Assembly (NCBI GenBank): GCA_002887195.1
Contig: PJAB01000752.1
Location: forward strand, 1-21,263
Direction: 5' to 3'
DNA: 21,263 bases
Origin: Chrysochromulina parva
Taxonomy: Eukaryota; Haptophyta; Prymnesiales; Chrysochromulinaceae
Shown: in pieces, positions 2,298-21,263 of the stretch
Layout: the number at the start of each line of letters is the position of its first letter
Position numbering within the stretch: position 1 is the stretch's first letter
Notes under the pieces: model-generated
Databases searched by the model: none
Seen by the model: the letters and a program-made list of their open reading frames with translations, nothing else
Told to the model about the DNA's origin: nothing
Position numbers and translations under genes: made by a program

Positions 2298-5200
2298 ATG
2301 CACGCGGCAATGCTCGTCAGCTTGCTGTACCCGCCGATCACGGGCTACAGCGTGGCGTACGGCCCCGGGGCACACAGCGTGCCGCCGATCGCTCCGCAGC
2401 GGCGACCCGCGCCAGCGCGTGTGGCAGCTCTGAGGATGGAGGTGGAGGCGGCGGCGCCATCGGCGGTCCAGTTGGCTGTGTCCTCCACTTTCCAGCTCCC
2501 AGGTGGCAGCGCCGGCAGCAGCATAGGCAGCAGCAGCAGCGATGGCGGCGATGGCGGCGTCGGAGAGGAGGACTGGTCGTTCTGGCTGTCGCGCCCGCGA
2601 TACGCCCGCTTGCGCGACATCGCCCTCTCCATCACCGTGCGAAGGACGGTCAACGAGGCGGAGCTCGCGCTCAAGCTCGCTCGGGAGTACTCGTCGAATC
2701 CGTCGCTGCTCCAGGATATCGACTTCTCGTCGCTGATCCTGCGGCTACAGAGAGACATCGACGTGAACAACGCGCCGCTCAGCGCCTCCGGGATGCTCTC
2801 GGCGGCCGAGCTCGACGAGATCTTGAAGCGCCAGATCGACGCGATCGCCGAGCTGAAGGCCAACCCTCTGGCGCTCGAGCTGGCGCTGGATGGAGCGGTG
2901 AGCGGCGCGGCGGGAAAGCTGCCCAAGCTGCGCCGCGTCATCTCGCGCGCTCGTGAGCTCCCATTAACGATCGATCTGCCCGCCATCCAAGGAGACGGCG
3001 GTCTGGACTTCCGACTCGCTCTCAATGAGAGCAAGAACGTCGTCGAGGCGGTCCAGCAGGCGTGGCAGCGGCTGAGCGGCACGTCGCCCGAGAAAGAAGA
3101 GACTCTCATGACCCTCCAGCAAGAGTCGCGGGCGTTGCTCTCTCTACGCGCCGAGGCGACGAAACTCCGTGGAGGTGATGGCGTCTGATTGCCACTGATT
3201 GCCATTGATTGCCATTGATTGCCATTGATTGCCATTGATTGCCATTGATTGCCACTGATTGCCATCAGAGGCGACGAAACTCCGTGGAGGTGATGGCGTC
3301 TGATTGCCACTGATTGCCACTGATTGCCATTGATTGTCATTGATTGCCATTGATTGCCATTGATTGCCACTGATTGCCATCAGAGGCGACGAAACTCCGT
3401 GGAGGTGATGGCGTCTGATTGCCATTGATTGCCCTTGATTGCCATTGACTGCCATTGATTGCCATTGATTGCCATCAGAGGCGACGAAACTCCGTGGAGG
3501 TGATGGCGTCTGATTGCCATTGATTGCCCTTGATTGCCATTGATTGCCCTTGATTGCCCTTGACTGCCATCAGAGGCGACGAAACTCCGTGGAGGTGATG
3601 GCGTCCGATTGCCATTCGAGTGCGGCTGATGGCCACACGAGTGCAGCTGATTGCCACCCGACGCCCCTTGACGAACCCGACTCCCCTTTCGCAGGCATCA
3701 AGCTCGTGCAGCGCCAAAAGGAGCTCAAGGCGGCCTACCTAATTAGGTTTGGCACCTCGGCAGGATTGATGGAGGAGACGTTACGCGCGGACGTGGCCAT
3801 CTGCAAGCTCCAAAAGGAGCTCGGGCTTAAGTACGTTGATTGCCATTGATTGCCATTGATTGCCATTGATTGCAGATGATTGCCGATGATTGCCAATGAT
3901 TCGCGAGCTGGAAGAGGGATCGTGGGCTCAAGTCCGCTCTCATCTTCGTGATTGCCTTATGATTGTGACTCGATTGCGACTGATGATCCCTGATTGCGTC
4001 TCCCTAATATGGCAGGTCCGCTCTGCTCGAAATGGAGCGCATCTTCCTGACTCTCGAGTCTGAGCTCGCACTCACCTCGTCCCTCATCGACCAGGTGATT
4101 GATTACGTCTGATTGCATCCTGATGGGGACTGATTACTCTCGAGTCTGAGCTCGCACTCACCTCGTCCCTCATCGACCAGGTGAGGACCACTGAGGACCA
4201 CTGAGGACCACTGAGTGCTATTTGATGACCTCCCATGACCTCCCATGACCTCCCATGACCACGGATGCTCCCCCGTCCGTCACCGGCCAGCTGCTCGAGG
4301 CCGTGCAGCGCTACGGCGAGATGGAGGCGAGATTGCACGCGATGGTGACCGAGGTGCAGCGAGATCAGCATGCACGCGTGGACGAGGATCAGCTACTTCA
4401 GCTCGAGCAGCAGATCTTCGTAGAGCTCTTGCAACTGGGGCTGCAGTCACAGGTAATTGACAACCTTTGAGTGCATTCTGACGACATCCGATGACCTTTG
4501 AGAGCATACTGATGACATCCGATGACCTTTGAGAGCATGCTGATGACATCCGATGACCTTTGAGAGCATACTGATGGCATCCGATGACCTTTGAGTGCAT
4601 ACTGATGACATCTGGTCGCATCTCGCAGGACACGGGTAGACCGGAAAGCTTCTCGTGGCCGCGCACGCGCGAGGCGCTCCAGGTCAATGCCAAGCGTGCC
4701 GGCGAAGGGCTTGCGTTCTACTCCCGAGGCCTCCGGCTCATGGGCGAGGATGTTCAGCTGATGGTCAATATGATCAGCCGCGCCGTCGTCCAAGGGTGCG
4801 CTGATTGCGTCTGATTGCGTCTGATTGCGTCTAATTGCCTAATATGATCAGCCGCGCCGTCGGCCAAGGGTACGCCCAAGACGACGCGAAGCTCTCTCAC
4901 TGATGACTGATGACCTCACTGATGACCGTTGATCTCTCACTGATGGCCGTTGATTACCAAGGGTATGGGAAGCTCTCCCCACAGCAGAGGTAGGGGAGGC
5001 ATGACAGTGCTCCCCACGGCGCCCTCTCCCCACAGGTACACCCTCAAGCCGCGGGAGGCGAAGTTGCTGCAGCGCATAGCCAAGGACCTCTTCACGCTCG
5101 TGCCCTTCGTCATCATCCTCATCATCCCTCTCTCGCCACTCGGGCATGTGCTCGTCTTCTCCTTCATCCAGCGCTTCTTCCCAGGTGATCTCCCGCTGAT

Positions 5201-5753
5201 CTCCCGCTCATCTCTGACCTCGGATGACCTCGGATGACCTCGGATGACCTCGGATGACCTCGGATGATCACGGATGATCACGGATGATCACGGATGATCT
5301 CGGATGACACCTGATGACCCTTTGGAGTGCCTCTGAGCGCGATCTCGTCCTCGGCAGATTTCTACCCGTCGCAATTCACAGAGTCTCGTCAGAACATCAT
5401 GTCGATGTACTCGGCCATCACAGCCCCGAGCACAGGTGCGCTGACGAACCTCTGACGAACCTCTGATGACCTATGATTGCCTTCCTCATCACAGCCCCGA
5501 GCACAGGTGCGCGGCTGAGCCTCGGTGCGGACCTCTGATGACCTATGATGAGGACCTCTGATTGCCTCCCTCATCAGGTGCGCGGCTGAGCCTCGGTGCG
5601 GACCCAGCAGAGCAGACGGAACAGGCGGGGGAGGTGGCGCAAGCAGTTGCGGGTGCGGTCATTGGCACCGAGGTGGCGCTGATGAAGGCCGAGGTGACGG
5701 AGACGGGCAAGGCGGAGGCGGAGGCTACGGGCAAGGCGGAGACGAAGTCCTGA
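2298..5753 (+). CDS. LETM1-like membrane protein, eight exons, probably plastid-targeted
   Basis: Exons are 2298-3174, 3695-3830, 4016-4094, 4291-4452, 4629-4795, 5036-5184, 5358-5435 and 5578-5753. All seven introns are GT-AG and every phase closes, giving 607 residues. Residues about 475-545 form the LETM1 core: [20 protein letters not shown], then the membrane helix ending [20 protein letters not shown], then [12 protein letters not shown]. The PLSPLGH form resembles the plastid LETM1-like branch more than mitochondrial LETM1. LETM1 proteins act in inner-membrane cation/proton exchange and organelle volume control. The N-terminus ([16 protein letters not shown], then a basic/alanine stretch [10 protein letters not shown]) could be a bipartite plastid leader, but the start and targeting are inferred. 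Exons 2-5 are rich in predicted helix and coiled-coil-like sequence. The C-terminal tail is Ala/Glu/Lys-rich. The ATG at 2298 is the first one in frame. Confidence 0.88.
3175..3694 (+). repeat. LETM1-like intron 1: TGATTGCCAT decamer arrays and four exon-end copies
   Basis: This 520-nt phase-1 intron has donor GGAG|GTGATGGCG and acceptor CCTTTCGCAG|GCATC. It holds long runs of the 10-bp unit TGATTGCCAT. They are interrupted four times (near 3268, 3388, 3478 and 3574) by CAGAGGCGACGAAACTCCGT followed by GGAG and GTGATGGCG, which repeats the end of exon 1 and its 5' splice site. Confidence 0.9.
3831..4015 (+). repeat. LETM1-like intron 2: decamer repeat and partial exon-junction copy
   Basis: This phase-2 intron opens GTACGTTGATTGCC and ends ATATGGCAG. 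It has TGATTGCCAT-type repeats at 3838-3900. At about 3926-3949 the sequence GGGCTCAAGTCCGCTC closely matches the spliced junction of exons 2 and 3 (GGGCTTAA|GTCCGCTC). Confidence 0.82.
4095..4290 (+). repeat. LETM1-like intron 3: exon-end copy and two decamer arrays
   Basis: A nearly 50-bp copy of the exon 3 end and its donor (ACTCTCGAGTCTGAGCTCGC onward to GACCAGGTGA) recurs at about 4135-4184. It is followed by the 10-bp arrays CTGAGGACCA x3 and TGACCTCCCA x3. The acceptor is CACCGGCCAG|CTGCTC, phase 0. Confidence 0.88.
4453..4628 (+). repeat. LETM1-like intron 4: about 31-bp tandem repeat
   Basis: This phase-0 intron is largely four to five copies of a roughly 31-bp unit composed of TGATGACATC, CGATGACCTT and TGAGAGCATAC. 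The acceptor is GCATCTCGCAG|GACACG. Confidence 0.88.
4796..5035 (+). repeat. LETM1-like intron 5: TGATTGCGTC decamers and exon-end copy
   Basis: The intron starts GTGCGCTGATTGCG with three TGATTGCGTC units. At about 4841-4869 it carries AATATGATCAGCCGCGCCGT plus CGGCCAAGG|GTACG, a copy of the exon 5 end and donor with one changed base. The acceptor is CTCCCCACAG|GTACACC, phase 2. Confidence 0.86.
5185..5357 (+). repeat. LETM1-like intron 6: CGGATGACCT and CGGATGATCA decamers
   Basis: Tandem 10-bp units fill 5218-5309: first CGGATGACCT, then CGGATGATCA. The donor is CCCAG|GTGATC and the acceptor is CCTCGGCAG|ATTTCTA, phase 1. Confidence 0.88.
5436..5577 (+). repeat. LETM1-like intron 7 containing an unsplit copy of the exon 7/exon 8 boundary
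   Basis: The exon 7 end is ATCACAGCCCCGAGCACAG|GTGCGCTGA. The exon 8 start is CATCAG|GTGCGCGGCTGAGCC. Inside the intron, at about 5489-5533, ATCACAGCCCCGAGCACAG runs directly into GTGCGCGGCTGAGCCTCGG. This looks like the intron-free ancestral order. Confidence 0.88.
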
Positions 5754-5880
5754 TCATGGCATGCTGGTGATGGCATGCTGATGATGGGCACTGTGGAGAC
5801 AAAGTCATAAGTAGATAAAGGAGCAATGGCCGTCAGAAGCGTGAGTGCTGCGGCCGACACCGGCGCCGTTGGCGGCGCGA

Positions 5881-6020
5881 ATCACCGTAACGAAACGTCC
5901 ATGGCCTGTGGGATCATCACCGTAACGAAACGTCCATGGCCTGTGGGATCATCACCGTAACGAAACGTCCATGGCCTGTGGGATCATCACCGTAACGAAA
6001 CGTCCATGGCCTGTGGGATC
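5881..6020. repeat. 35-bp tandem repeat, four copies
   Basis: Four near-perfect head-to-tail copies start at 5881, 5916, 5951 and 5986; the unit begins ATCACCGTAACGAAACGTCC and continues ATGGCCTGTGGGATC. There are no spacers, so it is a minisatellite and not a CRISPR array. It lies about 130 bp past the stop codon of the LETM1-like gene. Confidence 0.95.
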
Positions 6021-6425
6021 AGCCTTTGGGACGCGATGAGGCCTCATGGCGGGCGTTATGAGGCGTCATGGCGGGCGCACACACGCACACACGCTATGAG
6101 CAGGCGCGCGCGTGCGGGGTGCCAGGTGAGAGAGAGAGAGAGAGGAGGACCTGAATCCCGCACTCTCGCAGTCACTTAGCCCCCCACTTTGCCTCCCCGC
6201 TTTGCCCCCCCCACCTCCAGCTGCTGGGGTGGGGGAAGAGCAGAGAGGACCTGAATCCCACAGTGCCGCCAGTTACTTTCGCCCCTCCCCCCTCAGTCTC
6301 GGGCGAGTGGTGAGACGAAGGTGCAGGAGCGCAACGGACTGCGCGTACAGTGGGAGAATCGTCTCGGAATACATGTTGTAGTGCGTGTGTGTCGAATACA
6401 TGTTGCACAGCAAAAACGAAAATAC

Positions 6426-6445
6426 CGTCGTACAATTGTACGACG
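6426..6445. other. Perfect 20-bp palindrome
   Basis: CGTCGTACAATTGTACGACG is its own reverse complement with no spacer. It lies in a low-GC patch about 145 bp upstream of a weak ORF. A related core, GTACAATTGTA, occurs near 20468 upstream of the second U-box gene, so it may be a binding site for a dimeric factor. That role is inference. Confidence 0.6.
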
Positions 6446-6588
6446 TCCCCCCAATTGGATGAATTTTCTACTCAACTTTGTTGTCCGATTTGGAAAATCT
6501 CTGAAATCTCCGATGTGGCAAGTAGAAGTTTGAAAAAAGGGCGTTCGCGTGATTGAACACCCGATTGTGGAATCGCAAGTTTCGCGAC

Positions 6589-6942
6589 ATGCTTGAGGAC
6601 TCTCTCGCGTCGCGGCTTGCCGAGAGGCGTCAGCTCAGTCAGCGCCGCCGCAGCGAAAGACCGGCTTCCCCCTGGGCTCAAGCGAGCATGAGCCTACGTA
6701 CTCTATCACCTCTGTCACGTCGCGCAGAGACAGCGCGCACGAAGTTGTTTTCCGATGAGAAGGAGCCCTTGGCCATGTTCTCGCCCGAATTCTTTTCGTT
6801 GGTGTACACCGAGCAGAAGCAAGATCGCGCGACCGGCACCACGGAGCAGCAGAGGCGTGTGCTGCTCGCGCCCCGCTCACGCGATTCGTCGCCTCGACAC
6901 GGGGGGACGCCATCACCGACGCTCGTACTCCCCATCTGGTAG
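6589..6942 (+). CDS. Weak hypothetical ORF, 117 residues
   Basis: The frame starts at the first ATG (MLEDSLASRL) and ends LVLPIW. It is Arg/Ser-rich with one more ordinary stretch (KEPLAMFSPEFFSLVYTEQK). I recognise no domain, and an overlapping minus-strand frame is equally long. It sits downstream of an AT-richer region that could be a promoter. It is listed only as a candidate and may be non-coding. Confidence 0.2.
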   Translation: MLEDSLASRLAERRQLSQRRRSERPASPWAQASMSLRTLSPLSRRAETARTKLFSDEKEPLAMFSPEFFSLVYTEQKQDRATGTTEQQRRVLLAPRSRDSSPRHGGTPSPTLVLPIW

Positions 6943-7575
6943 CCCCCCCCCCGTCGCGCGCTCGTGGGGATCCGCCCACATCCGAATGTCGACGATCTGC
7001 TCACCTACGGTCGGATAGGCTTCGATCGGGTAGGTGACGAACCCGGCCTCTCTGCTGACTAATGAGCTTCGCGGAGTGCTCTGCGATCTCATGCTCCGGT
7101 GTACCCTTGTAAAGGGTCTGGCTCAGTTGCGTGTGGCCTTCAGGATGAGCGTGACTCGCTCAGGCCGCGTACGGCTCCAGTGATGTCTACTTGTGCATTC
7201 CATGTATTCAGTGCGCGTGCGTGTCGGTGTGGAATCTGACTCGTGCGCGTGCCGAGGTCAAAAGGGGAGGGGCTCAGGGCCGCCGGCTTGATGAACAAGC
7301 GGTGTCGTGTGTGTATCGGTCTGTATGGCGCTGGGTGTCTGCTGTGTCGGTCTCTCGCCGCCTTGAGCGCGGCGCGATCGTCGACGGTTCCTTATTTCTT
7401 CTAAGTCGAGAGTATCGGGAATAAATTTTAATATCCCGTATGTGGTATGACTTCGATCGCCCGTCGCTAACGACACCTAAATAGAAACGATCAAAGGGAT
7501 CGTGCGCGATCGCGATCGGGAGGCGAGATGTGGCGTGGATCGACAAGTTGACTCTCGATACTCAAACTCGATCGG

Positions 7576-10500
7576 TCATCGCGTGCGCTTGGGCGCTGCT
7601 TTGGAGGGTTGCCTCGCTGTCGCGCCGCTCGACCCCTTGCGAGGCGTCGTCTTGGGCGCATGGCCGGACGAGGCTCGATCTCGCTTGGAGCTCGATCTCG
7701 GCTGAGCTGACGCCGCGCGCGGTGGCGTCGGGCTCGGCGGCGGCGGGTTCGGCGGCGGCAGCGGCGTGTGCCGCTGCCGCTTGCGTGCGGCCATGATGGT
7801 CTCGAATGCCATCTTTGTCTTCACGAAGACTTCGGTTGTATCACGAGCCCTGTAATGACCGACGCAATCAGGTGGTCATCAGGAGTCATTATTAGTCATC
7901 AGGAGTCATCAGTAGTCACTCAGGGGGCAATCAGGTGTCATCAGGAGTCACATCTCACGTTTGAGAGTCGAAGGCCGACGTTTTATCTGGGTGATAGACG
8001 AGCGACAGCTTCCGATATGCGGATTTCACTTCACTCGTCGAAGCGAAACGGCTGAGACCAAGCGTCGCGTATGACTCCACCAATGAGAGCCCGTCCCTCG
8101 CCCAGCGTGTGCCTGATGTGGACGAGAGACGAGGCGCCGTGGTGAGCACACGCATTCTCGGGCAGGAGCTGAGGGCATGGAAACCCCTTAATGTCCCAAT
8201 CGAAGCATTTGGAGGTGCACTCAGAGGCACCCAGAGGCACTCAGAGGCACTCAGAGGCACCCAGAGGCACTCAGAGGCACTCAGAGGCACTCAGACGCAC
8301 CCAGAGGCACTCAGAGGCACTCAGAGGCAACCAGATGGGCACACCTTTAATGTCCCAATCGAAGCATTTGGAGGTGCGCCGGTCGCCACTGAAGATACAC
8401 AAGCGCTCGAACGCCGTGCCGAGCGCGCGTGACCATTCGATCTTGAGGCAGGCGTGCTCTTGCCAGCCACCGCCACCGAGCGCGTGAATGACGAACCTGG
8501 CGAGCCGATCGGGTCTGAGCATGCACATGCCGCCGCTGACGAAACGCGCCGCGTTGAGCGTGCGCTCTCGCCCGTCGACGGTGAGTGGCACCTGATGAGG
8601 GAGGCAATCAGCCACCATTAGGACGCCATCAGTCGTACTCTGGACGTAATCAGTCCCCATCAGAATGCAATCAGACGTAACCGGTCCCCATCAGGATGCA
8701 ATCTGACACAATCAGCGTACCGTCTGGCGCATGAGGAATGCAATCAGCCTGATGAGGGAGGCAATCAGACACAATCAGCGTACCGTCTGGCGCATGAGGA
8801 ATGCAATCAGCCTGATGAGGGAGGCAATCTGACACAATCAGCGTACCGTCTGGCGCATGAGCAGCCCTGCGAGCACCAGAGCCCAGAACGACGCGGCGAC
8901 GAACCTGATGAGGGAGGCAATCAGTCTGATGAGGCATGCAATCAGATATGTGAGCCCAGAACGACGCGGCGACGCACGTGACGGCCAGTGCCGCGAGCAA
9001 AGAGCGGCGCGGCTGTCGTGTGGACGGACGTCGACGTAACGACCGTATATTGACCGCCATGGCCGCGAGCAGCAGAGGTAACGTGACGCCGCCGCGCCCG
9101 GCATCCGTCGCGGCGGCGGCGGCGCCGGGAAGCCAGAGGGGCGCATAGCCACACCTGATGAACGACGCAATCAGAGGCCATCAGAGGCCATCAGAGGCCA
9201 TTCAGAGGCCATTCAGAGGCCATTCCGAGGTCATCCGAGGTCATCAGAGGTGATCAGAGGCCATTTGAGGTCATTTGAGGTCATCACCTCTCGATCACAG
9301 CGCCACCGAAAGCGCTTAGCGCGAGGAGCCTGTTGGGTACCGGTAGCCCCGTCGTGCCGGCAGCGAGGAAGAGGGTCAGCAGCGCGCAGCTTGCATGCAC
9401 CTGATGAGGGACGCAATCAGAGGTATTTAGAGGTCCTCAGAAGAGGCACTCAGGGTTTCATGCATACAGTCATGCACCTGATGAGCGACGCAATCAGACG
9501 TATTTAGAGGTCCTCAGAAGAGGGTTGCATGCATACCGTCATACGGAGCGTGGGCGACAGCAATCAGTCTGATGAGGCATGCAATCAGAAGAGGCTCTCA
9601 GGGTTGCATGCATACCGTCATACGGAGCGTGGGCGACAGCAGTGGCGGGTCTAGACTGCTGCTGAAGCGCAATGCGTGATATGTGAGCCACGAACCTGTC
9701 GTGCGAGAGGCGACCCGTCGCTGTCAGTCGCCATCTGTCGCAATCAGACGCAATCCGACGCACTCAGTCGCACACACTCGCACTCAGTCGCACACAGCAC
9801 GTGATGCGTGCGCCAGAGGCCATCAGAGGCGATACGCACCCTGAGCAATCAGAGGCAATCCGTTTCAATCAAGTGCAATCAGAGGTCATCAGAGGCCATC
9901 AGAGGCCATCAGAGGTCATCAGAGGCCATCAGAGGCCATCAGAGGCGCCACGCACCCAGGGCAAGGTGCCAGCTCAGACGATAGAGCAGCCGCACCGCGC
10001 CGGAGAGTACGCTGAGCTCCGAGGCCATCATCACCGTCTCACTCGCTAGAGGCTGGGCGCTCTCAGCGTGAGTTGCCATATTTTGGGCGACCTTCGCGAG
10101 TTGCCATTTTTGGGTCGGCGCGCCGCGCGTCGGCGCGCCGCCGTGGGCACCCTTGTCAAGCACCGAGGCTAGCGAGGCTGGAGAGGCTTCGAGGCTAGCG
10201 AGGCGGGAGAAGGCCTTCGAAGCGTCTCTCGAGGCAGGCTTTGACGACACCGCACCTCGAAGCCTCGCGATGGCTCCGACGGCCCACCGGCTCAGCTTGC
10301 CCACAGCGTCGAACGCGCCACCGCGGCTGCCGCCGCTCGGCTGGGCTTCGGCCTCAGCCTGGCCGAGCTGTCGCACGTAGCTCGGGATGCGGAACGCGTC
10401 GCGCACCCAGCCGAGCAGGAACCCGTTGAGCGAGATCGACGAGACGAGCGCCTCGCAGTTCCGGCCGAGGTACAGATGATGTGCGCCGAAGATGCCAAAG

Positions 10501-10799
10501 AGGGCCCAGAGCACGTACGCGACGAGCATCCGGAACACCGAGAACGGGACTCGCACGGCAGGAGCACCAGCCGGTGCGTATGCCTCGTTGGAGACGGCGG
10601 CAGGCGCGGAAGCCGCCCGTGCTGCGCGCAGCTCCGAGGCGATCAGCAGCTCTCTGCGTGCTGAAACGGTACGCCCGACGCCATGGAGGTGGCCATCAAT
10701 GGCGGCGGTGCTGGAGAGCATGAGAAGCAGCAGGATGCTGGCTATGGGTGGCGAACTTCGTCTCATTGTGGCTTTTGCTGTGGCTTTGAGGTATCGCAT
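7576..10799 (-). CDS. DNAJC22/wurst-type TM2 and J-domain membrane protein, eight exons
   Basis: Exons (minus) are 10799-9956, 9695-9616, 9400-9288, 9154-8978, 8904-8847, 8591-8345, 8112-7959 and 7849-7576. All seven introns are GT-AG and all phases close, giving 648 residues. A second ATG at 10766 would give 637 and puts the signal-peptide-like core (SILLLLMLSSTAA) nearer the N-terminus. Residues about 88-142 are a TM2 domain with GIFGAHHLYLGR and GWVRDAFRIPSYV. Further hydrophobic segments follow (CALLTLFLAAG; VTLPLLLAAMAV; SFWALVLAGLL). The J domain starts near 519 with YATLGLS and AYRKLSLVYHPDK; HPD is at 547-549. This order matches animal DNAJC22 (wurst), linked to clathrin-mediated endocytosis and Hsc70 recruitment. 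The roughly 60-residue Pro/Lys/Ser tail and the N-terminal signal peptide are additions to the animal form. Only the full exon chain shows the whole architecture. Confidence 0.9.
7850..7958 (-). repeat. DNAJC22-like intron 7: TGACTCCTGA-type repeat
   Basis: This 109-nt phase-2 intron interrupts the J domain shortly after HPD. Its body is short TGACTCC/TGATGAC units with spacing mostly near 10 bp. The donor is CAAAC|GTGAGA and the acceptor is GTCATTACAG|GGCTCG. Confidence 0.85.
8113..8344 (-). repeat. DNAJC22-like intron 6: TGCCTCTGAG decamers and exon-end copy
   Basis: A run of about a dozen 10-bp units TGCCTCTGAG occupies 8332-8220 (minus sense). It is followed by CACCTCCAAATGCTTCGATT GGGACATTAAG at about 8187-8218, a copy of the exon 6 end whose donor GT is lost (AAGGGGTTT). 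Confidence 0.9.
8592..8846 (-). repeat. DNAJC22-like intron 5: 63-bp repeat carrying the donor twice more
   Basis: CTCATGCGCCAGACG|GTACGCTGATTG, the end of exon 5 plus its donor, recurs twice downstream at a period of about 63 bp. Each copy is preceded by CCTCATCAG. The acceptor is TGCCTCCCTCATCAG|GTGCCAC, phase 0. Confidence 0.9.
8905..8977 (-). other. DNAJC22-like intron 4: 73-nt intron framed by a 26-bp direct repeat
   Basis: The intron begins GTGCGTCGCCGCGTCGTTCT then GGGCTC. Exon 5 begins GTTCGTCGCCGCGTCGTTCT then GGGCTC, so 25 of 26 bases match. The rest of the intron is two copies of a CTGATTGC...CATCAG end motif. This is the clearest tandem-duplication intron in the window. Confidence 0.92.
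9155..9287 (-). repeat. DNAJC22-like intron 3: TGACCTCAAA / TGGCCTCTGA decamers
   Basis: Nearly the whole 133-nt phase-2 intron is tandem 10-11-bp units of the TGAYNNCCT type, in the sense of the minus-strand transcript. The acceptor is TCGTTCATCAG|GTGTGG. Confidence 0.88.
9401..9615 (-). repeat. DNAJC22-like intron 2: exon-end copy and repeated donor
   Basis: The exon 2 end and donor (TGTCGCCCACGCTCCGTATG then ACG|GTATGCATGCAACCC) are repeated at about 9525-9558. A third, degraded copy of the donor lies near 9450-9475. Exon 3 begins GTGCATGCAAGC, resembling the donor GTATGCATGCAACC. The acceptor is TGCGTCCCTCATCAG|GTGC, phase 0. Confidence 0.86.
9696..9955 (-). repeat. DNAJC22-like intron 1: TGATGGCCTC decamers
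   Basis: Read on the minus strand, the phase-1 intron opens GTGCGTGGCGCCTCTGATGG and has tandem 10-bp units TGATGGCCTC/TGATGACCTC at 9945-9870. Exon 2 begins GTTCGTGGCTC, resembling the intron's own first bases. A second donor-like GGTGCGTATCGCCTCTGATGG lies near 9825-9840. Confidence 0.85.
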
Positions 10800-11729
10800 G
10801 CCAGGACGCCACCCTTTCTGCGAGCGCGCCGTGGAGGTCTTCGAGGTGTGTGATGACGCGTGTGAATGGTCAACGGCCCTGTGAGTGTAAGTAAGTTTTC
10901 TCTGCTCAAGCAAGGACAAAGTTTGTGGGGGTCCTGTAAATCGTGAAGCAAGTTTGGTAGTTGACCTACCTGACAACACCGCCATGGCTCTTGCCGTGCG
11001 CGGATGCCGTGACTGCCGTGCCCCATCGCATGACGGATAGACCGAGGAGGTGGCAGGTGCGTCGAAGCATTGCATGGTAATGACGTGGCCCCGACCCACC
11101 GCCATATCATAGCTGGACACGTCTCCGGGGGTGGCAGGAGCAGGAACACGGCCAGGAACTCGGCCCGAGCCACCGAACTCGCCGAGAGCACGTCGGAACA
11201 CATGTGTGTGCTGAGAGCACAGATCACAGCTCCGGGCGGGCGCTGTGGCGGGCGCGCGACCAGACTGAGAGCACAGATCACAGCGTCGTCCGGGCGGGCG
11301 CTGTGGCGGGCGCGCGACCAGACGGTGCTCTCCCCACAGTACTGTCTCCGCTGTGCTGCCTCGGAGCTCTGCTACCCAAATCAGGCAAGTATCTCCGCCC
11401 AAATCAGGCAAGTATCTCCGCTGTCTCGGGGCCGCCGTTAGGCGCTCTGCTGGGCACCCTCTGCTGCCGATAGGCGCCCTGCTGGGCACCCTCTGCCGCG
11501 TATGTCCACTCGTCCGCATGCCGCATGCATCGGCCGCCGCGCCGCGCCGTATCGGGCGCGCCGTCGTCCTCATGCCGCATGCATCGGCCGGTCTGGCCGC
11601 GCCGTATCGGGCGCCCGCTGCGCACATCTCTCTCGCTCTCAGTGAGTCAGATGCCCCCTTACGCTCACACGCACGCACGCGCGCGCACCTCCCTCACCCT
11701 CTTTCGCGCGCGTACGTGCGAACATCTGC
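10800..11729. other. Intergenic region between the helicase 3' end and the DNAJC22-like 5' end
   Basis: Both flanking genes are on the minus strand, so this should hold the promoter and 5' leader of the DNAJC22-like gene and the 3' end of the helicase. It contains short tandem duplications: an imperfect 54-60-bp unit (CTGAGAGCACAGATCACAGC) at about 11211-11323 and a 23-bp unit (AAATCAGGCAAGTATCTCCG) twice near 11378 and 11401. A 54-bp unit with GCATGCCGCATGCATCGGCC recurs near 11517 and 11571. The minus-strand frame of the DNAJC22-like exon stays open upstream to 11678 but is compositionally unlike protein. Confidence 0.55.
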
Positions 11730-14396
<2,667 letters not shown>

Positions 14397-14541: not shown

Positions 14542-15321
14542 ATGCCGCCAAAGCGCGGCCGCGCGGCTGCCGAGGCCGAGGATGAGACGGCGCAGCTGCG
14601 CCGACACAAGAGCGCATTCGAGGAGGCCATGAACGAGTTCCTCTGCCCCATCACCTTCTCGCTGCCCGTCGACCCCGTCATCGCGGAGGACGGCAAGGTG
14701 TACGAGCGCTCGGCCATCGAGGAGTGGCTCGAGCAGCAGCACAAGAGCCCGGTGACGAACTTGGAGATGGGCACGAGGCTGCTGCCGGCGCTGCAGGTCA
14801 AGAACATGATCCGCACGATGGTCACCTCGGGCGCTCTCACGGGTGACAAGGTGGACGCGTGGAAGCTGAAGCTGGAGGAGGAGGAGAAGGTGGCGGTGAT
14901 GCTGCGCTTGGCTGAGGCTGGTAATGGCGGGGCGATGTTCATCCTGGGGCTTTGGTACTGGCTTGGTCAGAAGGGCCTCGCAAAGGACTTGGCCAAGGCG
15001 TTCGAGTGGTACAAGAAGAGCCACGAGGCTGGGAATGCAAGTGGGACTGGCTGCCTTGGCCTTTTCTACTTGCGGGGGAATGGCGTGCCAGAGTGCCAAT
15101 CGCGTGCCAATACGCTGCTGAGTGACGCCGCCGCACGCGGCAGTAAATACGCGTGCCACAAATTGGGGCAATCATACGCAAATGGCCTCGCGGGCTTCCC
15201 GAAGGACGAGCCGATGGCGCGCCGCTACTACTCGATGGTGGCGAGCGCCTCGCTCGATGATTGCGACGACGACTCAAAGGAGGAAGCAGTCAAATGGCTG
15301 AGTGAGCATCCAGCAGCTTGA
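14542..15321 (+). CDS. U-box protein with Sel1-like repeats, intronless
   Basis: The 259-residue product has a basic N-terminus (MPPKRGRAAAEAEDE). Residues about 31-95 are a U-box with FLCPITFSLPVDPV, GKVYERSAIEEWL and SPVTNLEM. A U-box is a RING-like fold without zinc that recruits E2 ubiquitin-conjugating enzymes, so the protein is probably an E3 ubiquitin ligase. A charged helix follows (KLKLEEEEKV). Then come about three Sel1-like repeats: AMFILGLWYWLGQKGLAKDL (129-164), GCLGLFYLRGNGV (165-200) and KLGQSYANGLAGFPKDEPMA (201-240). Sel1 repeats usually bind partner proteins. There are no introns and no decamer repeats. The segment from residue 2 to 42 is closely repeated in the second U-box gene at the right edge. 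Confidence 0.9.
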   Translation: MPPKRGRAAAEAEDETAQLRRHKSAFEEAMNEFLCPITFSLPVDPVIAEDGKVYERSAIEEWLEQQHKSPVTNLEMGTRLLPALQVKNMIRTMVTSGALTGDKVDAWKLKLEEEEKVAVMLRLAEAGNGGAMFILGLWYWLGQKGLAKDLAKAFEWYKKSHEAGNASGTGCLGLFYLRGNGVPECQSRANTLLSDAAARGSKYACHKLGQSYANGLAGFPKDEPMARRYYSMVASASLDDCDDDSKEEAVKWLSEHPAA

Positions 15322-16099: not shown

Positions 16100-19000
16100 T
16101 CAAATCTTCCCACGCCAAGAAGATTCTAAAGAGACGAGTTCGCTCGCCTCCTTGACGGACACCTGCACGTTCTCCTCAACCTGTTGCACGCGGCTTGGGC
16201 CGGGTGGCCGAGAGGCAGCGATGGCGGCGTCGAGGGCGGCGGTGACAGTATCGGTCCTTGACAACGGCATCACCGGCGTCACGCGTGAGCGCGCCGCGAA
16301 CGCACAAGTTCCCTGCTGGTTGGAAGCGCGAGCTGTGGCACGTGGTGTGAACATATCATCCGCGGCAACGAGGGCCGGTCTGTCGTCAGTGGTGCCGATT
16401 GTAGTGGTATCAGCTGTGATGGCACTGCCGCTGCTGCTGCTGGCCGCTGGAACACGACGTTCAGGTGGTGGGAGACGTCCAGGTGGTGGGAGACGTCCAG
16501 GTGGTGGGAGACGTCCAGGTGGTGGGAGACGTTCAGGTGGTGGGAGACGTCCAGGTGGTGGGAGACGTCCAGGTGGTGGGAGACGCCGGGCCGGAGGCAT
16601 CGCGCTCGTCAAGTCGGCATGCGGCAAGGCAGGGCGCGCAGACGCCCCATGTAGGTCATTCGACGACGTGAGACCACGAGAAAGGCTCATTGCCGTTGGC
16701 GTCGCTCGGGAGAGTCTCCCGAGGGTAGAGCGCCCGCGCGACGACCTGGAACTATCAAAGCCTCCACGCTCAGTCGCAGCCGATGCATCCAACGCCGGGA
16801 CCCCGGAGGACGGGCGAGAGTCTGCCTTCTTGCCATAGGCGGACCTGTCTGATGGAGCCACTTTCTCATCTTCTTGCACAAAAGATGAGCATGAGGGAGT
16901 CGATGAGGTGGCCGCCACATTCCATAGTCCATCATCATCTTCTATTCTTCTCACTTTTGCGGCGGCGAAGGCTGCAGAGAGGGACTGGCCTGCTCGTGCA
17001 GCGACGCGTGCTCGCTCGAGCTTCGCGGTCACGTTGTCGCCTAATTTGGTATCGAGCTTTGCGGTCGAGTTGTTGATACGAGATGGGAATGGGTCATGTG
17101 ATCGCGTCCTCTCGTGCGCCGTTACGGGCGTCATCGCGGAGGTGCGACCTCTATCTCGTTGCGATTCTTTCCTTAGGTCAACATCGTCCGATGTGGGGGC
17201 TGTTGGGGGGGCTGCAGTTGTGGGTGCTGCAAGAGCAGCAGAGCGAGCGGGGGTAGAAGCGTGTCCGACCTCGACCTTGGCGAGATCGGTCATATCGATG
17301 CCCGAGTTGCCATCGCGTTCATCGTTGGGCCTGCTCGGGGTTGAGCCTTGCCCCAGCTTTGCACGGCGTCTGCGGCGCCTTCGAACCATGAGCACTGCAA
17401 TCCCAAGCGCACAGGCCACATTCGAAACTCCCGCCATGATCAGAGCGATCAGCAGAAAGGACGATGAGGCGCTATCTTTGGCCAACAACGCTGCAGCCGA
17501 ACTGGCGTCGAGCCGCTCCGTGTCATCCGGCACAAGGACAGTGGCGACCTGGGGCGCCGTGATGCCCTGCACCTGCACGTTCGTAAACTGTGGGTTGGCG
17601 CGGAGGTTGTGTGTGAAGGAGGCGGGGGCCATCGCGACCATGCTGACGGAGTTTCTGATCTGGACGGCGGAGGTTGCGTCTGGGGTGACGATTCTGGTGG
17701 TCACGATGATTGAACCCTCCTCAACCTCGAGCGAAATGCTATCCGCGCTCACGCCAACCTGGGCGGCTACGGTGTTCTTGTATACGGCTCGCGCATTCAC
17801 GTCGAAGTCGTCCAACGACATGCTGAGTGTAACGGCGAAAGAGACTTGCTGCTGCGTCACTGCGCCCGGGGGGTACGGCGGTGGCGGCAGGGGGTCGGGC
17901 GGCGGTGGCGGCGGCGGAGGCGGCTGCCACGGCGGTGGAGATGGTTCAGGAGGGCGAGGCGATGGTGGGGGTGGGGGCGGAGGCGATGGCTCCGGAGGCG
18001 TGCGCGGAGTTGGCGGTGTTGATGGGGGGTACGGCTGCGAAGGTTGGGAAGGAGGAGGTGGAGAGGGCTCAGGTGGTGAAGGTGAGGGCGGAGGAGGAGG
18101 AGGGGGACATGGTTCAGGAGAGGGTGGCAGAAGCACGGGAGGTGCTGATGGCTGTGGGAATGGCGATTCTGGAGCTTGCAACGGTGGAGACGGCGGCGGG
18201 GGTGGTAATAAAGATGGAGGCGGCGGCGATGGTGACAGAGGCGGCGGCGGTGGTGGTGGTTGTGGTGGTGATGGAAGCGGCTGCAAGGGCGGCGATGCTC
18301 GCGGGATGCGCGGGCCACAGTCGGTGCAGTCGGTGCCATAAGGACACGACGACAACACAGCGCCGGCGCCGCCGTCGCTGCAGACTGGGCTGACGAAGTC
18401 GCACGTGTTCGAGCAGAGAGCAGAGGGCGGTGAGGGCGGGGCCGCAGGAGGTGGAAGATTCGGCGTGATGCCCGTATCGAGTACTGCCCGCAGTGCATCA
18501 AGCCCGGACGGACTGAGCTGAGTCTGGATGTTGAGCCCCACGTTGAGAGCTGTGCTGTCAGTGGACCCGGCAGTAACACTCCCGATGGCGGAGGTGGCGC
18601 TCAACACGTCGTTCGTGAGCTGACCAGCGCATGCTGCCACCACCACCATGTCAGCCGGAGTAGAAGTAGGCGCAGAGGCCGAGGGGATGCATGCATCGCC
18701 TTGTACGCCAACGGATGCGAAAGTTGGGGGCGGCGGCAGGCTCAGTGGAGGTGCAGTCGGCCGGCTCGGGGAGTTGACGAAACCCCCTGGAGGGAAAGGT
18801 GGGGCCGACGGAGGGCTGGGTGGCCTGCTCGGCCGCGGCCTGCTTGGTTCGGGAGTGAACGGTGATGGCGGCGGCGGCGGGAAAGGCGTGGGGCTCCGCG
18901 GTGGAGTGACTAGAGGCGTCGGAGGGGGTGGCGACGGCGGAGGCGGCAGCGGCGGCGGCGGAAATGGAGGCGGTGGCCTTGGCGGCGGCGGCGAGGGAGG

Positions 19001-20191
19001 GGGTCGGGTAGGCGGCGACGGCGGCGGGGGCGACGGCGGGGGCGGCGATGGCGGTGACGGTGGGGGCGGCGACGGCGACGGTGGGGGGGGCGACGGCGGT
19101 GGAGGCGAAGGCGGGCGAGCGGGCGGCGGCGGCGGCGACGGCGGGGGCGGCGACGGCGGTGGGGGAGTCGAAGGTGGAGGCGGCGGAGGCGACATTGGCG
19201 GGAGCGAAGGTGGCGACGGCGACGGAGGCGGGGGAGGTGAAGGCTCGGGTGACAGAGGCGACGGAGGGGGTGGCGACGGCGGAGGCGGCAGTGGCGGCGG
19301 CGGTGGCGGCGGAGGTGGCGGGGGAGAAGGCGGTGGGCTCCGCGGTGGAGGAGAGGCTGGCGGCGCCCCGGGTGGTGGACGCGGAGGGGGGAGATCTGGA
19401 GGAGGGAGATCTGGAGGGGGGCGATCTGGAGGAGGGAGATCTGGAGGGGGGCGATCTGGCGTTGGCGGCGGCGGCCGTGAAGGCTCTGGAGGAGGGAGAT
19501 CTGGAGGAGGAGGAGCCTCAGGGCTGGGCGGCGGCACCGAAGGTGGCGGCGACGCCGGCGGCAACGATGGCGGGAGGGCAGGTGGCATCGGAGGCGGAGA
19601 GGGCGGAGGTGGAGAAGGCGGAGAGGGCGGAGAGGGCGGAGAGGGCGGTGAGGGCGGTGAGGGAGGCGGAGAGGGCGGAGAGGGCGGAGGCGACATCGTG
19701 ACCGACATTCCCGCTGGCACTGCAGCAGAGGGATCGATGGCAACCTGAGCTTGGACGCTGACGCTCATGCTCAACGTCGAACCAGGGCACGATACAATAG
19801 CAAGAGCCGCAATCGTCTCGTTGAGCAACACCAAGAGAGCGTGAGTAGCAGCCGTGCCGCCGATTGCAGGTGTGGGTGAGGCGATGACGATTCTCACGGC
19901 CTCTGTACAAGCCTGGAATGACCCCTGCAGCTCACGGCGACGAGATTGAACGACGTCGAAATCATAGTGCTCGTGATCGAGGATGCGAAGACGCGCTCCC
20001 GAGGGAAGCACCCCGCTGAGCTGGCCACGTCCAGAGCCCGTCGGCGCTGAAGGTGCTCCATACATCCCAGGAGAGTAGACGTAGTACGGGCCAGTCGACG
20101 GCAGTGGCAGCGGCGGAGTACGTGAGTTGTTCGTCGCTGCTGGCGGCGGTAGGTCCGGCAGGGAGGGCGATCCCTGCGTTCCCCATGGCAT
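16100..20191 (-). CDS. Large proline-rich single-pass membrane protein, pherophorin-like architecture
   Basis: The frame is open for 1363 codons without an intron; the first ATG is at 20191. It has a short Pro-rich start, then a globular segment (about 67-152, with ILDHEHYDFDVVQSRRRELQ and one Cys pair). Long PPSPPP stretches follow (about 164-465 and 630-770). Between the two Pro stretches lie a segment at about 494-575 and a Cys motif near 592-629: CSNTCDF, CSDGG, CPYGTDCTDCGPR. A SEA-like segment follows (about 775-835: VTLSMSLDDFDV, GSIIVTTRIV). The membrane helix is at about 905-932 (FLLIALIMAGVSNVACALGI), followed by RRRRRRR. The roughly 430-residue tail is Ser/Arg-rich and holds seven RLPPPG-type repeats. 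PPSPPP is typical of hydroxyproline-rich algal wall and surface proteins. No clear signal peptide is visible at the start, so an upstream exon may be missing. Glycine-rich frames on the other strand are shadows. Confidence 0.75.
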   Translation of the reverse strand: MPWGTQGSPSLPDLPPPAATNNSRTPPLPLPSTGPYYVYSPGMYGAPSAPTGSGRGQLSGVLPSGARLRILDHEHYDFDVVQSRRRELQGSFQACTEAVRIVIASPTPAIGGTAATHALLVLLNETIAALAIVSCPGSTLSMSVSVQAQVAIDPSAAVPAGMSVTMSPPPSPPSPPPSPPSPPSPPSPPSPPSPPPPSPPPMPPALPPSLPPASPPPSVPPPSPEAPPPPDLPPPEPSRPPPPTPDRPPPDLPPPDRPPPDLPPPDLPPPRPPPGAPPASPPPRSPPPSPPPPPPPPPPPLPPPPSPPPPSPLSPEPSPPPPPSPSPPSLPPMSPPPPPPSTPPPPSPPPPSPPPPPARPPSPPPPSPPPPSPSPPPPSPPSPPPPSPPPPSPPTRPPPSPPPPRPPPPFPPPPLPPPPSPPPPTPLVTPPRSPTPFPPPPPSPFTPEPSRPRPSRPPSPPSAPPFPPGGFVNSPSRPTAPPLSLPPPPTFASVGVQGDACIPSASAPTSTPADMVVVAACAGQLTNDVLSATSAIGSVTAGSTDSTALNVGLNIQTQLSPSGLDALRAVLDTGITPNLPPPAAPPSPPSALCSNTCDFVSPVCSDGGAGAVLSSCPYGTDCTDCGPRIPRASPPLQPLPSPPQPPPPPPPLSPSPPPPSLLPPPPPSPPLQAPESPFPQPSAPPVLLPPSPEPCPPPPPPPSPSPPEPSPPPPSQPSQPYPPSTPPTPRTPPEPSPPPPPPPSPRPPEPSPPPWQPPPPPPPPPDPLPPPPYPPGAVTQQQVSFAVTLSMSLDDFDVNARAVYKNTVAAQVGVSADSISLEVEEGSIIVTTRIVTPDATSAVQIRNSVSMVAMAPASFTHNLRANPQFTNVQVQGITAPQVATVLVPDDTERLDASSAAALLAKDSASSSFLLIALIMAGVSNVACALGIAVLMVRRRRRRRAKLGQGSTPSRPNDERDGNSGIDMTDLAKVEVGHASTPARSAALAAPTTAAPPTAPTSDDVDLRKESQRDRGRTSAMTPVTAHERTRSHDPFPSRINNSTAKLDTKLGDNVTAKLERARVAARAGQSLSAAFAAAKVRRIEDDDGLWNVAATSSTPSCSSFVQEDEKVAPSDRSAYGKKADSRPSSGVPALDASAATERGGFDSSRSSRGRSTLGRLSRATPTAMSLSRGLTSSNDLHGASARPALPHADLTSAMPPARRLPPPGRLPPPGRLPPPERLPPPGRLPPPGRLPPPGRLPPPERRVPAASSSSGSAITADTTTIGTTDDRPALVAADDMFTPRATARASNQQGTCAFAARSRVTPVMPLSRTDTVTAALDAAIAASRPPGPSRVQQVEENVQVSVKEASELVSLESSWRGKI
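16461..16586 (-). repeat. 18-bp tandem repeat, seven copies
   Basis: Seven units of AGGTGGTGGGAGACGTCC, with C/T variation at one site, encode RLPPPG/RLPPPE hexapeptides in the cytoplasmic tail of the proline-rich protein. The period keeps the frame. Confidence 0.93.
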
Positions 20192-20789
20192 CAAAGACGT
20201 CGGGGCGGGGCGAAGGGAAGTCGACTCAGAATCGCGCCACTTCAAGTCAAGTCAAGTCAAGTCAAGTCAAGACAAGTCGCCGCTTCGGGCGACAAACATC
20301 GTAAGACACCAAAAGTGCAGCGGTTCCTCGAGGACTTCCCCTCCTCTAAAGAATGGCTCAAATTTTAGATCTTCACTTTCTGCAGTGAGTTCCCGCGTCA
20401 AGAAAACAATCAAGCGTCTGGCGCCGCTGGGCTCTGGGGTGGCGCTCTGACTCGTCTCTGTCTGAGGGTACAATTGTATTTGGGAATCGAGTCATATTTT
20501 ACGTTATATACGGCTCGACTGGTCACGGGGTTATGCATGGGGGTACCCGAGGTTCGCCTTCATGTTTCCCGCTTCGCAACTGCTCGCCACGCACGACGCG
20601 GCTACGTGCGAACGAGGGTATCGTGTCGGCCGTTATAACGAATAATTATGTGTACATGTAATACATAAAATACACAGATCTTTTCCAATGGAATCCATGG
20701 TTTCCCACCCTTCCCGTTGGGTAAGTTTGGTAAGTTTGCAAAACGCGCACTTTTCGGCGAAAAAAGCCGACGAGTCGTGAAATCCGACG
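20192..20789. promoter_or_regulatory. Divergent intergenic region before the proline-rich gene and U-box gene 2
   Basis: It contains a five-base repeat (CAAGT, about seven units) at 20243-20278, just upstream of the proline-rich gene's ATG, in its likely 5' leader. It also has GTACAATTGTA near 20468, AT-rich TATTTTACGTTATATACGG near 20496 and AT-rich TAATACATAAAATACAC near 20659. CTTTTCGGCGAAAAAAGCCG at about 20750-20769 resembles a segment before U-box gene 1. Promoter roles are inferred. Confidence 0.5.
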
Positions 20790-21263
20790 ATGCCGCTTGC
20801 GAGGGTGGTGGCGGGCAGCCGCGGTGGCGATTCGGCAGCAGCAGCATCACGCGCAGCGTCAGCAGCAGCAGCAGCAGGAGCAGGAGCACGAACAGCAGTC
20901 GCTGACGCGGAAGACGGCCCACCTTCGCCAGCGCCCGCCCCGCCCTCCTCGAAGGCGCTCTTGAAGAGGGAGCGTAAAGCGGAGCGGCATCCACCGGGCG
21001 GCAGGTTCGCCGACCTGCAGATGCTAACAGCTAAATGCAATGCTCTCGTGGAGCAATCCAAGGCCGATTTGGCAATCTTCCTGCACAAAACAGAGCGAGG
21101 CGTTGCGCGAGCTGGAGCTGCGGCAGACCAACGCAAAAGGCCGCCCAAGCGCGGCCGCGAGGCTGCCGAGGCCGAGGACGCGACGGTGCAGCTGCGCCGA
21201 CACAAGAGCGCCACCGAGGAGGCCTTTGCCGAGCTCGTCTGCCCCATCACCTTCTCGCTGCCC
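20790..21263 (+). CDS. Second U-box protein, 5' part only (runs off the right edge)
   Basis: The frame from the ATG at 20790 stays open to the window edge (158 codons). It starts MPLARVVAGSRGG, then an Ala-rich stretch, a Pro/Lys segment and a helical region (LQMLTAKCNALVEQSKADLA). It then enters PPKRGREAAEAEDATVQLRR and VCPITFSLP, the beginning of a U-box. The last roughly 125 bases are very similar to 14543-14667 in U-box gene 1, so the two are paralogues about 6 kb apart. Where gene 1 has its ATG, gene 2 reads AGG within a longer protein; gene 2 therefore has about 115 extra N-terminal residues. Likely an E3 ubiquitin ligase; whether Sel1 repeats follow cannot be seen. Confidence 0.85.
   Translation, partial: MPLARVVAGSRGGDSAAAASRAASAAAAAGAGARTAVADAEDGPPSPAPAPPSSKALLKRERKAERHPPGGRFADLQMLTAKCNALVEQSKADLAIFLHKTERGVARAGAAADQRKRPPKRGREAAEAEDATVQLRRHKSATEEAFAELVCPITFSLP

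What the first reader, a model, noticed from the sequence alone, without database searches (positions are those of the whole stretch)
3175..13573. A family of 10-bp, transcript-sense tandem repeats fills the introns of at least three genes
Arrays of different 10-bp units recur in intron after intron: TGATTGCCAT, TGATTGCGTC, CGGATGACCT, CTGAGGACCA, TGACCTCCCA, TGATGGCCTC, TGCCTCTGAG, TGACCTCTAA and TGCCACTCCT. They share a TGAYNNCYNN-like plan and the same length but not the same sequence. In the plus-strand gene they read this way on the plus strand, and in the minus-strand genes on the minus strand, so they follow the RNA. I found none in the intronless genes or intergenic stretches. Ten is not a multiple of three, so a run puts TGA stops in all three frames of any unspliced transcript. 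TGAY also resembles a branch-point core. A role in marking introns, in splicing or in decay of unspliced RNA is inference.
Basis: partly seen in the sequence, partly recalled or inferred. Interest (0 to 1): 0.85.

Follow-up and report, generated by a model that had tools for sequence, protein, structure and literature searches.

The report
Spreading introns carrying ten-base repeats
The ten-base repeats lie in predicted introns of a likely algal genome; one intron 3' end recurs more than 1,600 times in that genome, and at about half of the copies examined a 13-40-base piece of the neighbouring gene sequence is repeated on both sides, so these introns likely arose by inserting into genes and borrowing a splice site from them.

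Summary
In 19 modelled introns of three genes, lag-10 self-match is 0.475 against 0.274 in exons and 0.274 between genes; TGAY runs 206 sense to 31 antisense. The arrays belong to a larger system. Many introns end in a shared 20-mer, CTGATTGCCTYCCTCATCAG: 1,627 hits genome-wide, 0 for the reversed pattern (tandem copies counted). Its first ten bases resemble the array unit. A second family, core TGCTCACCACGGCGCC, has 1,472 hits, control 4. At 44 of 80 fetched copies the insert is flanked by a 13-40 bp direct duplication, read as exon; true versus shuffled flank pairs score 50 of 80 versus 7 of 400. I read these as introner-like introns with long, variable target duplications. The arrays would be later expansions, sense because only sense inserts could be spliced. 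A decay role through stops is not supported: 0 of 19 second-family unit introns have stops in all three frames. Splicing, branch points and mobility are untested here. Earlier introner duplications were 3-9 bp, and the published screen's stated rules would likely discard this class.

The parts
2298..5753 (+). LETM1-like gene, 7 GT-AG introns: 3175-3694, 3831-4015, 4095-4290, 4453-4628, 4796-5035, 5185-5357, 5436-5577
   Evidence: Model; Pfam LETM1_RBD; no gap at junctions 1-6 against P0001, junction 7 in a variable tail
11730..14396 (-). DEAD-box helicase gene, 5 introns: 13280-13573, 12921-13109, 12808-12874, 12635-12745, 12206-12432
   Evidence: Model; Pfam DEAD and Helicase_C; no insertion at the five junctions against DBP2 8ark
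7576..10799 (-). TM2+DnaJ gene, 7 introns: 9696-9955, 9401-9615, 9155-9287, 8905-8977, 8592-8846, 8187-8344, 7850-7958
   Evidence: Splice anchors; TM2 and DnaJ domains in separate exons; joined frame not checked by homology
3185..3570 (+). CTGATTGCCA decamer arrays in LETM1 intron 1, within 95/115-bp units that repeat the exon end GAGGCGACGAAACTCCGTGGAG
   Evidence: TRF
3836..3901 (+). TTGATTGCCA array, LETM1 intron 2
   Evidence: TRF
4182..4260 (+). TGAGGACCAC and ATGACCTCCC arrays, LETM1 intron 3
   Evidence: TRF
5215..5319 (+). TGACCTCGGA array, LETM1 intron 6
   Evidence: TRF
8217..8329 (-). CTCTGAGTGC array, TM2-DnaJ intron 6; this intron has no YTNAY
   Evidence: TRF
9170..9286 (-). GGCCTCTGAT array, TM2-DnaJ intron 3
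   Evidence: TRF
9878..9946 (-). GGCCTCTGAT array, TM2-DnaJ intron 1
   Evidence: TRF
12661..12744 (-). GACCTCTAAT array, helicase intron 4
   Evidence: TRF
12940..13016 (-). TCCTTGCCAC array (no TGAY), helicase intron 2
   Evidence: TRF
5558..5577 (+). First-family 3' end, exact 20-mer, LETM1 intron 7
   Evidence: family count
13280..13299 (-). First-family 3' end, helicase intron 1
8905..8924 (-). First-family 3' end, exact 20-mer, TM2-DnaJ intron 4
8592..8611 (-). First-family 3' end, exact 20-mer, TM2-DnaJ intron 5
12220..12235 (-). Second-family core, one mismatch, helicase intron 5
   Evidence: family count
4050..4184 (+). 49-bp perfect direct repeat (4050-4098, 4136-4184): exon end plus donor copied inside LETM1 intron 3
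5504..5604 (+). 30-bp perfect direct repeat (5504-5533, 5575-5604): start of the last LETM1 exon also inside intron 7, beginning CAG|GT
12635..12774 (-). 29-bp direct repeat, one mismatch, at the two ends of helicase intron 4; here the exon copy supplies the AG
12797..12887 (-). 24-bp direct repeat, two mismatches, at the two ends of helicase intron 3
8188..8377 (-). 31-bp perfect direct repeat at the two ends of TM2-DnaJ intron 6

Best explanation
The arrays are the repetitive interior of a genome-wide set of predicted introns, many of which share one 3' end (CTGATTGCCTCCCTCATCAG), and which likely formed when this piece inserted into exons just before a GT, likely duplicating 13-40 bp of exon so that the inner exon copy would supply the 5' splice site and the inserted piece the branch point and AG. 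Shown here: the 3' end in 1,627 places, a second core in 1,472, flanking duplications at 44 of 80 fetched copies, and a sense bias. Inferred: that copying and not convergence spread the ends; that excision by the spliceosome restores the exon; that CTGAT and CTCAC are branch points; that the decamer arrays grew later by tandem expansion of the branch-point unit; and that they read in the RNA sense because only sense insertions could be spliced and persist. On this view the arrays need no function of their own.
For: Shared ends: 1,627 and 1,472 hits within one mismatch, backward-pattern controls 0 and 4 (hits include tandem copies within one intron). Duplications: 44 of 80 fetched sites, 13-40 bp, median 24.5, 16 of 44 perfect; exact excision by GT-AG at 24 of 44, GC-AG at 6, GA-AG at 3; GT-AG in antisense at 3; control dinucleotide pairs 0-9 of 44. 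Shuffled flank pairs: 50 of 80 true against 7 of 400. In the window 12 of 19 introns hold or abut an exon copy scoring at least 15 (no shuffle run for these). In the unselected stretches plus the window, 20 of 42 second-family cores within two mismatches have a nearby repeat (some are tandem units, not exon). Orientation: 59 sense, 10 antisense, 5 unclear, 6 not scorable of 80 sites (p 1.4e-9); strand model right in 148 and wrong in 3 of 156 held-out pieces. Canonical U1 5' end and U2 branch region are present.
Against: No RNA data. 36 of 80 sites show no duplication under my thresholds, and 11 of 44 with one have no GT, GC or GA-AG exact excision. 7 of 19 window introns have no exon copy scoring 12 or more. 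Two cruder orientation tests in unselected DNA were weak (10/7/2 and 20/13/16). No autonomous element or empty-site allele was found or sought. The fetched sites are exact matches, so young copies are favoured. The second-family insert has no constant 5' end, unlike a classical transposon.
Confidence: 0.68

Rival explanations
1. Tandem duplication of an exon piece holding AG|GT made each intron (Rogers model), and its 3' part was later overwritten by sequence that splices well, including the decamers.
For: Unit introns measure 73 +/- 9 bp, and duplication and insert lengths compensate (r -0.60, 44 sites), as if a fixed length had been partly overwritten. Whole exon-plus-intron units are duplicated in tandem in the window. 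Fission yeast has two gained introns made of tandem repeats (PMC3629103, passages).
Against: The overwriting sequence is a shared module at very many loci, which local duplication does not give; identity falls to background just outside the duplicates (0.27 and 0.31).
Confidence: 0.15
2. Functional convergence: a strict branch-point and acceptor consensus is selected in every intron, and decamers arise by slippage; nothing is mobile.
For: Each conserved core holds a YTNAY followed by pyrimidines and AG (sequence); the sense bias follows.
Against: Sixteen to twenty near-identical bases exceed usual splice consensus, there are two unrelated cores, and exon duplications flank them.
Confidence: 0.1
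3. One reading: the arrays are kept because they mark introns or put stops in all frames of unspliced RNA.
For: 16 of 19 window introns have stops in all frames; YTNAY is enriched.
Against: 8 of 33 unit introns, and 0 of 19 of the second family, have them; no avoidance of lengths divisible by three; some units lack TGA.
Confidence: 0.07
4. Assembly artefact: collapsed or chimeric repeats mimic duplications.
For: The source is a fragmented assembly of 2,199 contigs.
Against: Where GT-AG excision works, 18 of 24 have it within 3 bp of the duplication's left edge; modules follow gene strand; excision gives intact LETM1 and helicase proteins.
Confidence: 0.02

Closest known systems
Introners (Gozashti et al. 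2022, PMC9860276: abstract, passages, sections 15 and 17 seen; Huff et al. 2016 recalled, not held)
   Same: Many similar introns in unrelated genes; the element carries one splice site and the other comes from the duplicated target; a Chrysochromulina (a haptophyte, recalled) is among the hosts.
   Different: Target duplications of earlier families 3-9 bp, 4 bp in the Chrysochromulina, against 13-40 bp and variable here. That screen required similarity within ten intronic bases of both borders and filtered low-complexity families.
Staggered-break neointrons of Daphnia (PMC4202315, passages)
   Same: A piece of exon is repeated at the far end of the intron; repeats inside introns; introns near 78 bp.
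   Different: Repeats of 4-12 bp there; source of most inserts unknown, whereas here a shared module recurs.
[quoted passage not shown] fission yeast PMC3629103, passages)
   Same: AG|GT (or AG|GC) in a duplicated exon piece gives the splice sites; introns with tandem repeats.
   Different: Here about a third of the intron is exon copy; the rest is a dispersed module.
Amoebophrya introners (PMC7789003, passages)
   Same: Repeated introns with direct repeats at the borders and non-GT donors.
   Different: Direct repeats of 3-5 nt and inverted repeats of 8-20 nt there; I saw no such long inverted ends here but ran no systematic test.

Membership tests
Introner elements | Family of near-identical introns at many non-homologous gene positions | tested here: met
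   1,627 and 1,472 hits; different exon flanks at the 80 fetched sites. Only 3' modules, not whole introns, are shared
Introner elements | Similarity starts within ten intronic bases of both borders (screening rule of PMC9860276) | tested here: not met
   At the 44 sites with a duplication the intron's first bases are locus-specific exon copy; it is a screening rule rather than a definition
Introner elements | Creation of the intron by insertion (empty site in another allele or strain) | not tested
   No second strain at hand; exon duplications are indirect evidence
Introner elements of DNA-transposon type | Short target duplication (3-9 bp) | tested here: not met
   13-40 bp, variable; shorter ones would escape my threshold of score 12
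Introner elements of DNA-transposon type | Terminal inverted repeats | not tested
   By eye only a 5-bp CTGAT...ATCAG within the first-family 20-mer
Introner elements | Splicing shown by RNA | not testable with these tools
   No RNA reads; protein continuity only
Tandem-duplication introns (Rogers) | Intron body derives from the duplicated exon | tested here: not met
   Duplication mean 24.7 of 72.6 bp; beyond its edges identity is background
[quoted passage not shown]
   but the filler contains shared modules, unlike the described cases

The most novel reading that the evidence does not exclude
A distinct class of intron-spreading system: a short branch-point-plus-acceptor module, in its first family built of decamers, is captured at staggered breaks in exons, giving long variable exon duplications (13-40 bp) that become the 5' part of a ~73-nt intron, with no transposase-type ends. 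It has seeded hundreds to thousands of introns in one likely haptophyte and is invisible to the published introner screen.
Probability: 0.45. Interest if true: 0.85.

Novelty: new variant of a known kind. Interest (0 to 1): 0.72.

Why it matters
Where introns come from is an open question. Here very many apparent births can be read in one 45-Mb genome, some with both exon copies still identical, so the insertion event itself can be dissected. Long variable duplications point away from a cut-and-paste enzyme and towards repair of staggered breaks with copied intron pieces. The stated rules of the published introner screen would likely reject this class, so it may be more common than known. It also explains the strange sense-strand decamers without a special function.

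Tried and rejected
General test of GT-AG excisability over 115 repeat pairs in the unselected stretches and the window: 34 of 115, but five control dinucleotide pairs gave 29-42 and the others 7-16 (CT-AC, the reverse complement, also 34); decamer repeats dominate the set. Dropped in favour of motif-anchored sites.

Local copying of modules between introns of one locus: variants within a locus and strand are no closer than between loci (3.37 against 3.42 mismatches, permutation p 0.45, 27 sites). Not supported.

Special U2 pairing to the decamer: the U2 region reads AAGTGTAGTATCTGTTCTTATC, which I recall as canonical.

Known RNA families at gathering score, or tRNAs, in the window: 0. First-family 20-mer in viral contigs: 0 exact matches.

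Codon-model scripts used wrong frames or strands and are void; one search replaces them. The random-window control was loose (55 of 400 against 62 of 80 at score 12), as stretches rich in coding repeats and arrays entered it; the shuffled-pair control is used. An open-frame test across excision was uninformative, antisense frames being open more often (39 against 31 of 44). An early test on 27 first-family ends in the window and loci then held found 8 above the 99% control.

Literature on 10-bp intron repeats in haptophytes: the listings of searches (titles and abstract starts) showed no such report; the library lacks most subscription papers, so this is no proof of absence. The E. huxleyi genome paper is recalled only and was not looked up.

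Full report
Setting. The window is contig C752 of an assembly of 45.07 Mb in 2,199 contigs; G+C is 0.636 in 200 kb of unselected DNA. The only relative of its LETM1 protein with an organism name, among 42 hits, is from a Prymnesium sp. assembly (42% identity), so the organism is likely a haptophyte alga; this is inference.

Observation. I modelled three intron-bearing genes. LETM1 (+) gives one open 607-aa protein after removing seven GT-AG introns, has a LETM1_RBD match, and aligns with its closest relative P0001 without a gap at junctions 1-6; junction 7 lies in a variable tail. The helicase (-) gives an open 592-aa protein after removing five introns and aligns with DBP2 (8ark) with no insertion at any of the five junctions. 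A TM2+DnaJ gene (-) has seven introns by splice anchors only (domains). In these 19 introns lag-10 self-match is 0.475 against 0.274 in exons and 0.274 between genes, 10-bp arrays cover 30.4% against 0% and 0.6%, and TGAY is 206 sense to 31 antisense. In 200 kb of unselected DNA the 10- and 11-bp classes stand out among lags not divisible by three, with their multiples 20 and 22.

A shared intron end. LETM1 and the helicase have closely similar introns, starting GTGCGCTGACGAACCTCTGA and ending GATTGCCTYCCTCATCA. The 20-mer CTGATTGCCTYCCTCATCAG occurs 1,627 times in the genome within one mismatch, 0 times read backwards; hits include tandem copies in one intron, so introns are fewer. Its first ten bases match the CTGATTGCCA array unit at nine of ten positions; CTGAT fits YTNAY; the last ten are mostly pyrimidine and end in CAG. 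A second motif, seen in helicase introns, TGCTCACCACGGCGCC, occurs 1,472 times (control 4); it too holds a YTNAY (CTCAC) and is mostly followed by pyrimidines and CAG.

Exon duplications. I fetched 40 copies of each family, exact matches, from the first 61 and 58 listed places. At 44 of 80 the insert is flanked by a direct repeat, 13-40 bp, median 24.5, perfect in 16 of the 44 (18 of 40 first family, 26 of 40 second). With downstream flanks paired to wrong upstream flanks, 7 of 400 reach the score that 50 of 80 true pairs reach (Fisher 5e-39). Removing exactly one repeat period by GT-AG is possible at 24 of 44 (within 3 bp of the left edge at 18), by GC-AG at 6, by GA-AG at 3, by none of these at 11; by GT-AG in antisense at 3; control dinucleotide pairs gave 0-9. 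So in the typical case the inner exon copy would supply the donor and the inserted module the branch point and acceptor. In the window the reverse also occurs (12635-12774: the exon copy supplies the AG). 12 of 19 window introns hold or abut an exon copy scoring 15 or more (no shuffle run for these). In the unselected stretches plus the window, 20 of 42 second-family cores have a repeat, some of them tandem units rather than exon; of 27 first-family ends in loci then held, 8 exceed the 99% control.

Orientation. A codon model trained on three window genes and eight kinase domains calls held-out 120-bp pieces right in 148 of 156 and wrong in 3. Sequence just after the module is sense in 59, antisense in 10, unclear in 5 and not scorable in 6 of 80 sites (p 1.4e-9). 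In unselected DNA 9 of 11 family arrays are sense, 1 antisense, 1 unclear; of 42 second-family cores there and in the window 21 are sense, 4 antisense, 1 unclear, 16 not scorable. Two cruder scorings were weak: 10 sense, 7 antisense, 2 unclear for 19 first-family ends, and 20 sense, 13 antisense, 16 without bias for 49 arrays.

Mechanism. I propose insertion of a short intron module into exons with duplication of the target, borrowing one splice site, then tandem growth of the decamer and sometimes of exon-plus-intron units (68-bp units in helicase intron 1, 95- and 115-bp units in LETM1 intron 1). Sense orientation would follow because only sense copies splice. Unit introns measure 73 +/- 9 bp, and duplication and insert lengths compensate (r -0.60, 44 sites), which suggests a length that splices well or one set at birth. 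Variable duplications and the lack of a constant 5' end fit repair of staggered breaks with copied intron DNA better than a transposase; this is inference. Local copying of modules is not supported.

Function of the arrays. Stops in every frame are found in 16 of 19 window introns, but in 8 of 33 unit introns, all first family, and 0 of 19 of the second family; lengths divisible by three are not avoided (17 of 44). Predicted introns here do not need such stops. Extra branch-point-like sites remain possible: YTNAY is 173 sense, 29 antisense, mean 54.5 in shuffles, but 0 in one 158-nt intron. U1 and U2 were found, one copy each, and look canonical (canonical form recalled).

Comparison. Introners are known, including in a Chrysochromulina with 4-bp duplications; earlier families had 3-9 bp (PMC9860276, abstract, passages and sections 15 and 17 seen). 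That screen required similarity to start within ten intronic bases of both borders and removed low-complexity families, so the present class would likely be lost. Daphnia neointrons have 4-12 bp exon repeats (PMC4202315, passages). A survey of 213 introns found direct repeats of 4-30 bp, mean 11.4 (PMC11782384, passages). The present system works like an introner but does not meet the short-duplication feature of the transposon type.

Limits. No RNA and no second strain; exact-match sites favour young copies; TM2-DnaJ exon joins were not checked by homology; outer gene ends used are off by about 20 bp.

Noticed in passing
L117:4260-4554 (IMG/VR contig IMGVR_UViG_3300027760_000958): The end of a phage-like contig carries a second-family core, a short TGACGAACCC decamer run and a repeated flank like those of the window's genome: a chimeric contig, or DNA carried by a virus.
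   Followed up: partly
window 8133-8148, minus strand: An exact second-family core lies in what reads as open coding sequence of the TM2-DnaJ gene: an unspliced or exonised copy, or an intron that I missed.
   Followed up: no
L044, L049, L081, L082, L090: Several copies have GC or GA where the donor GT is expected (6 GC-AG and 3 GA-AG of 44 sites), which suggests relaxed donor choice.
   Followed up: no
window 14542-15321 and 20781-21263: A U-box plus Sel1 gene without introns, and a partial second copy of its N-terminal part at the window end.
   Followed up: no
window 5881-6021: Four perfect copies of a 35-bp unit between genes.
   Followed up: no
window 16100-20251, minus strand: A 1,383-aa open frame rich in PPSPPP, without Pfam match.
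   Followed up: no
window 3153-3616 and 13280-13595: Tandem units that repeat an exon end with its 5' splice site several times; each could act as a small extra exon.
   Followed up: no
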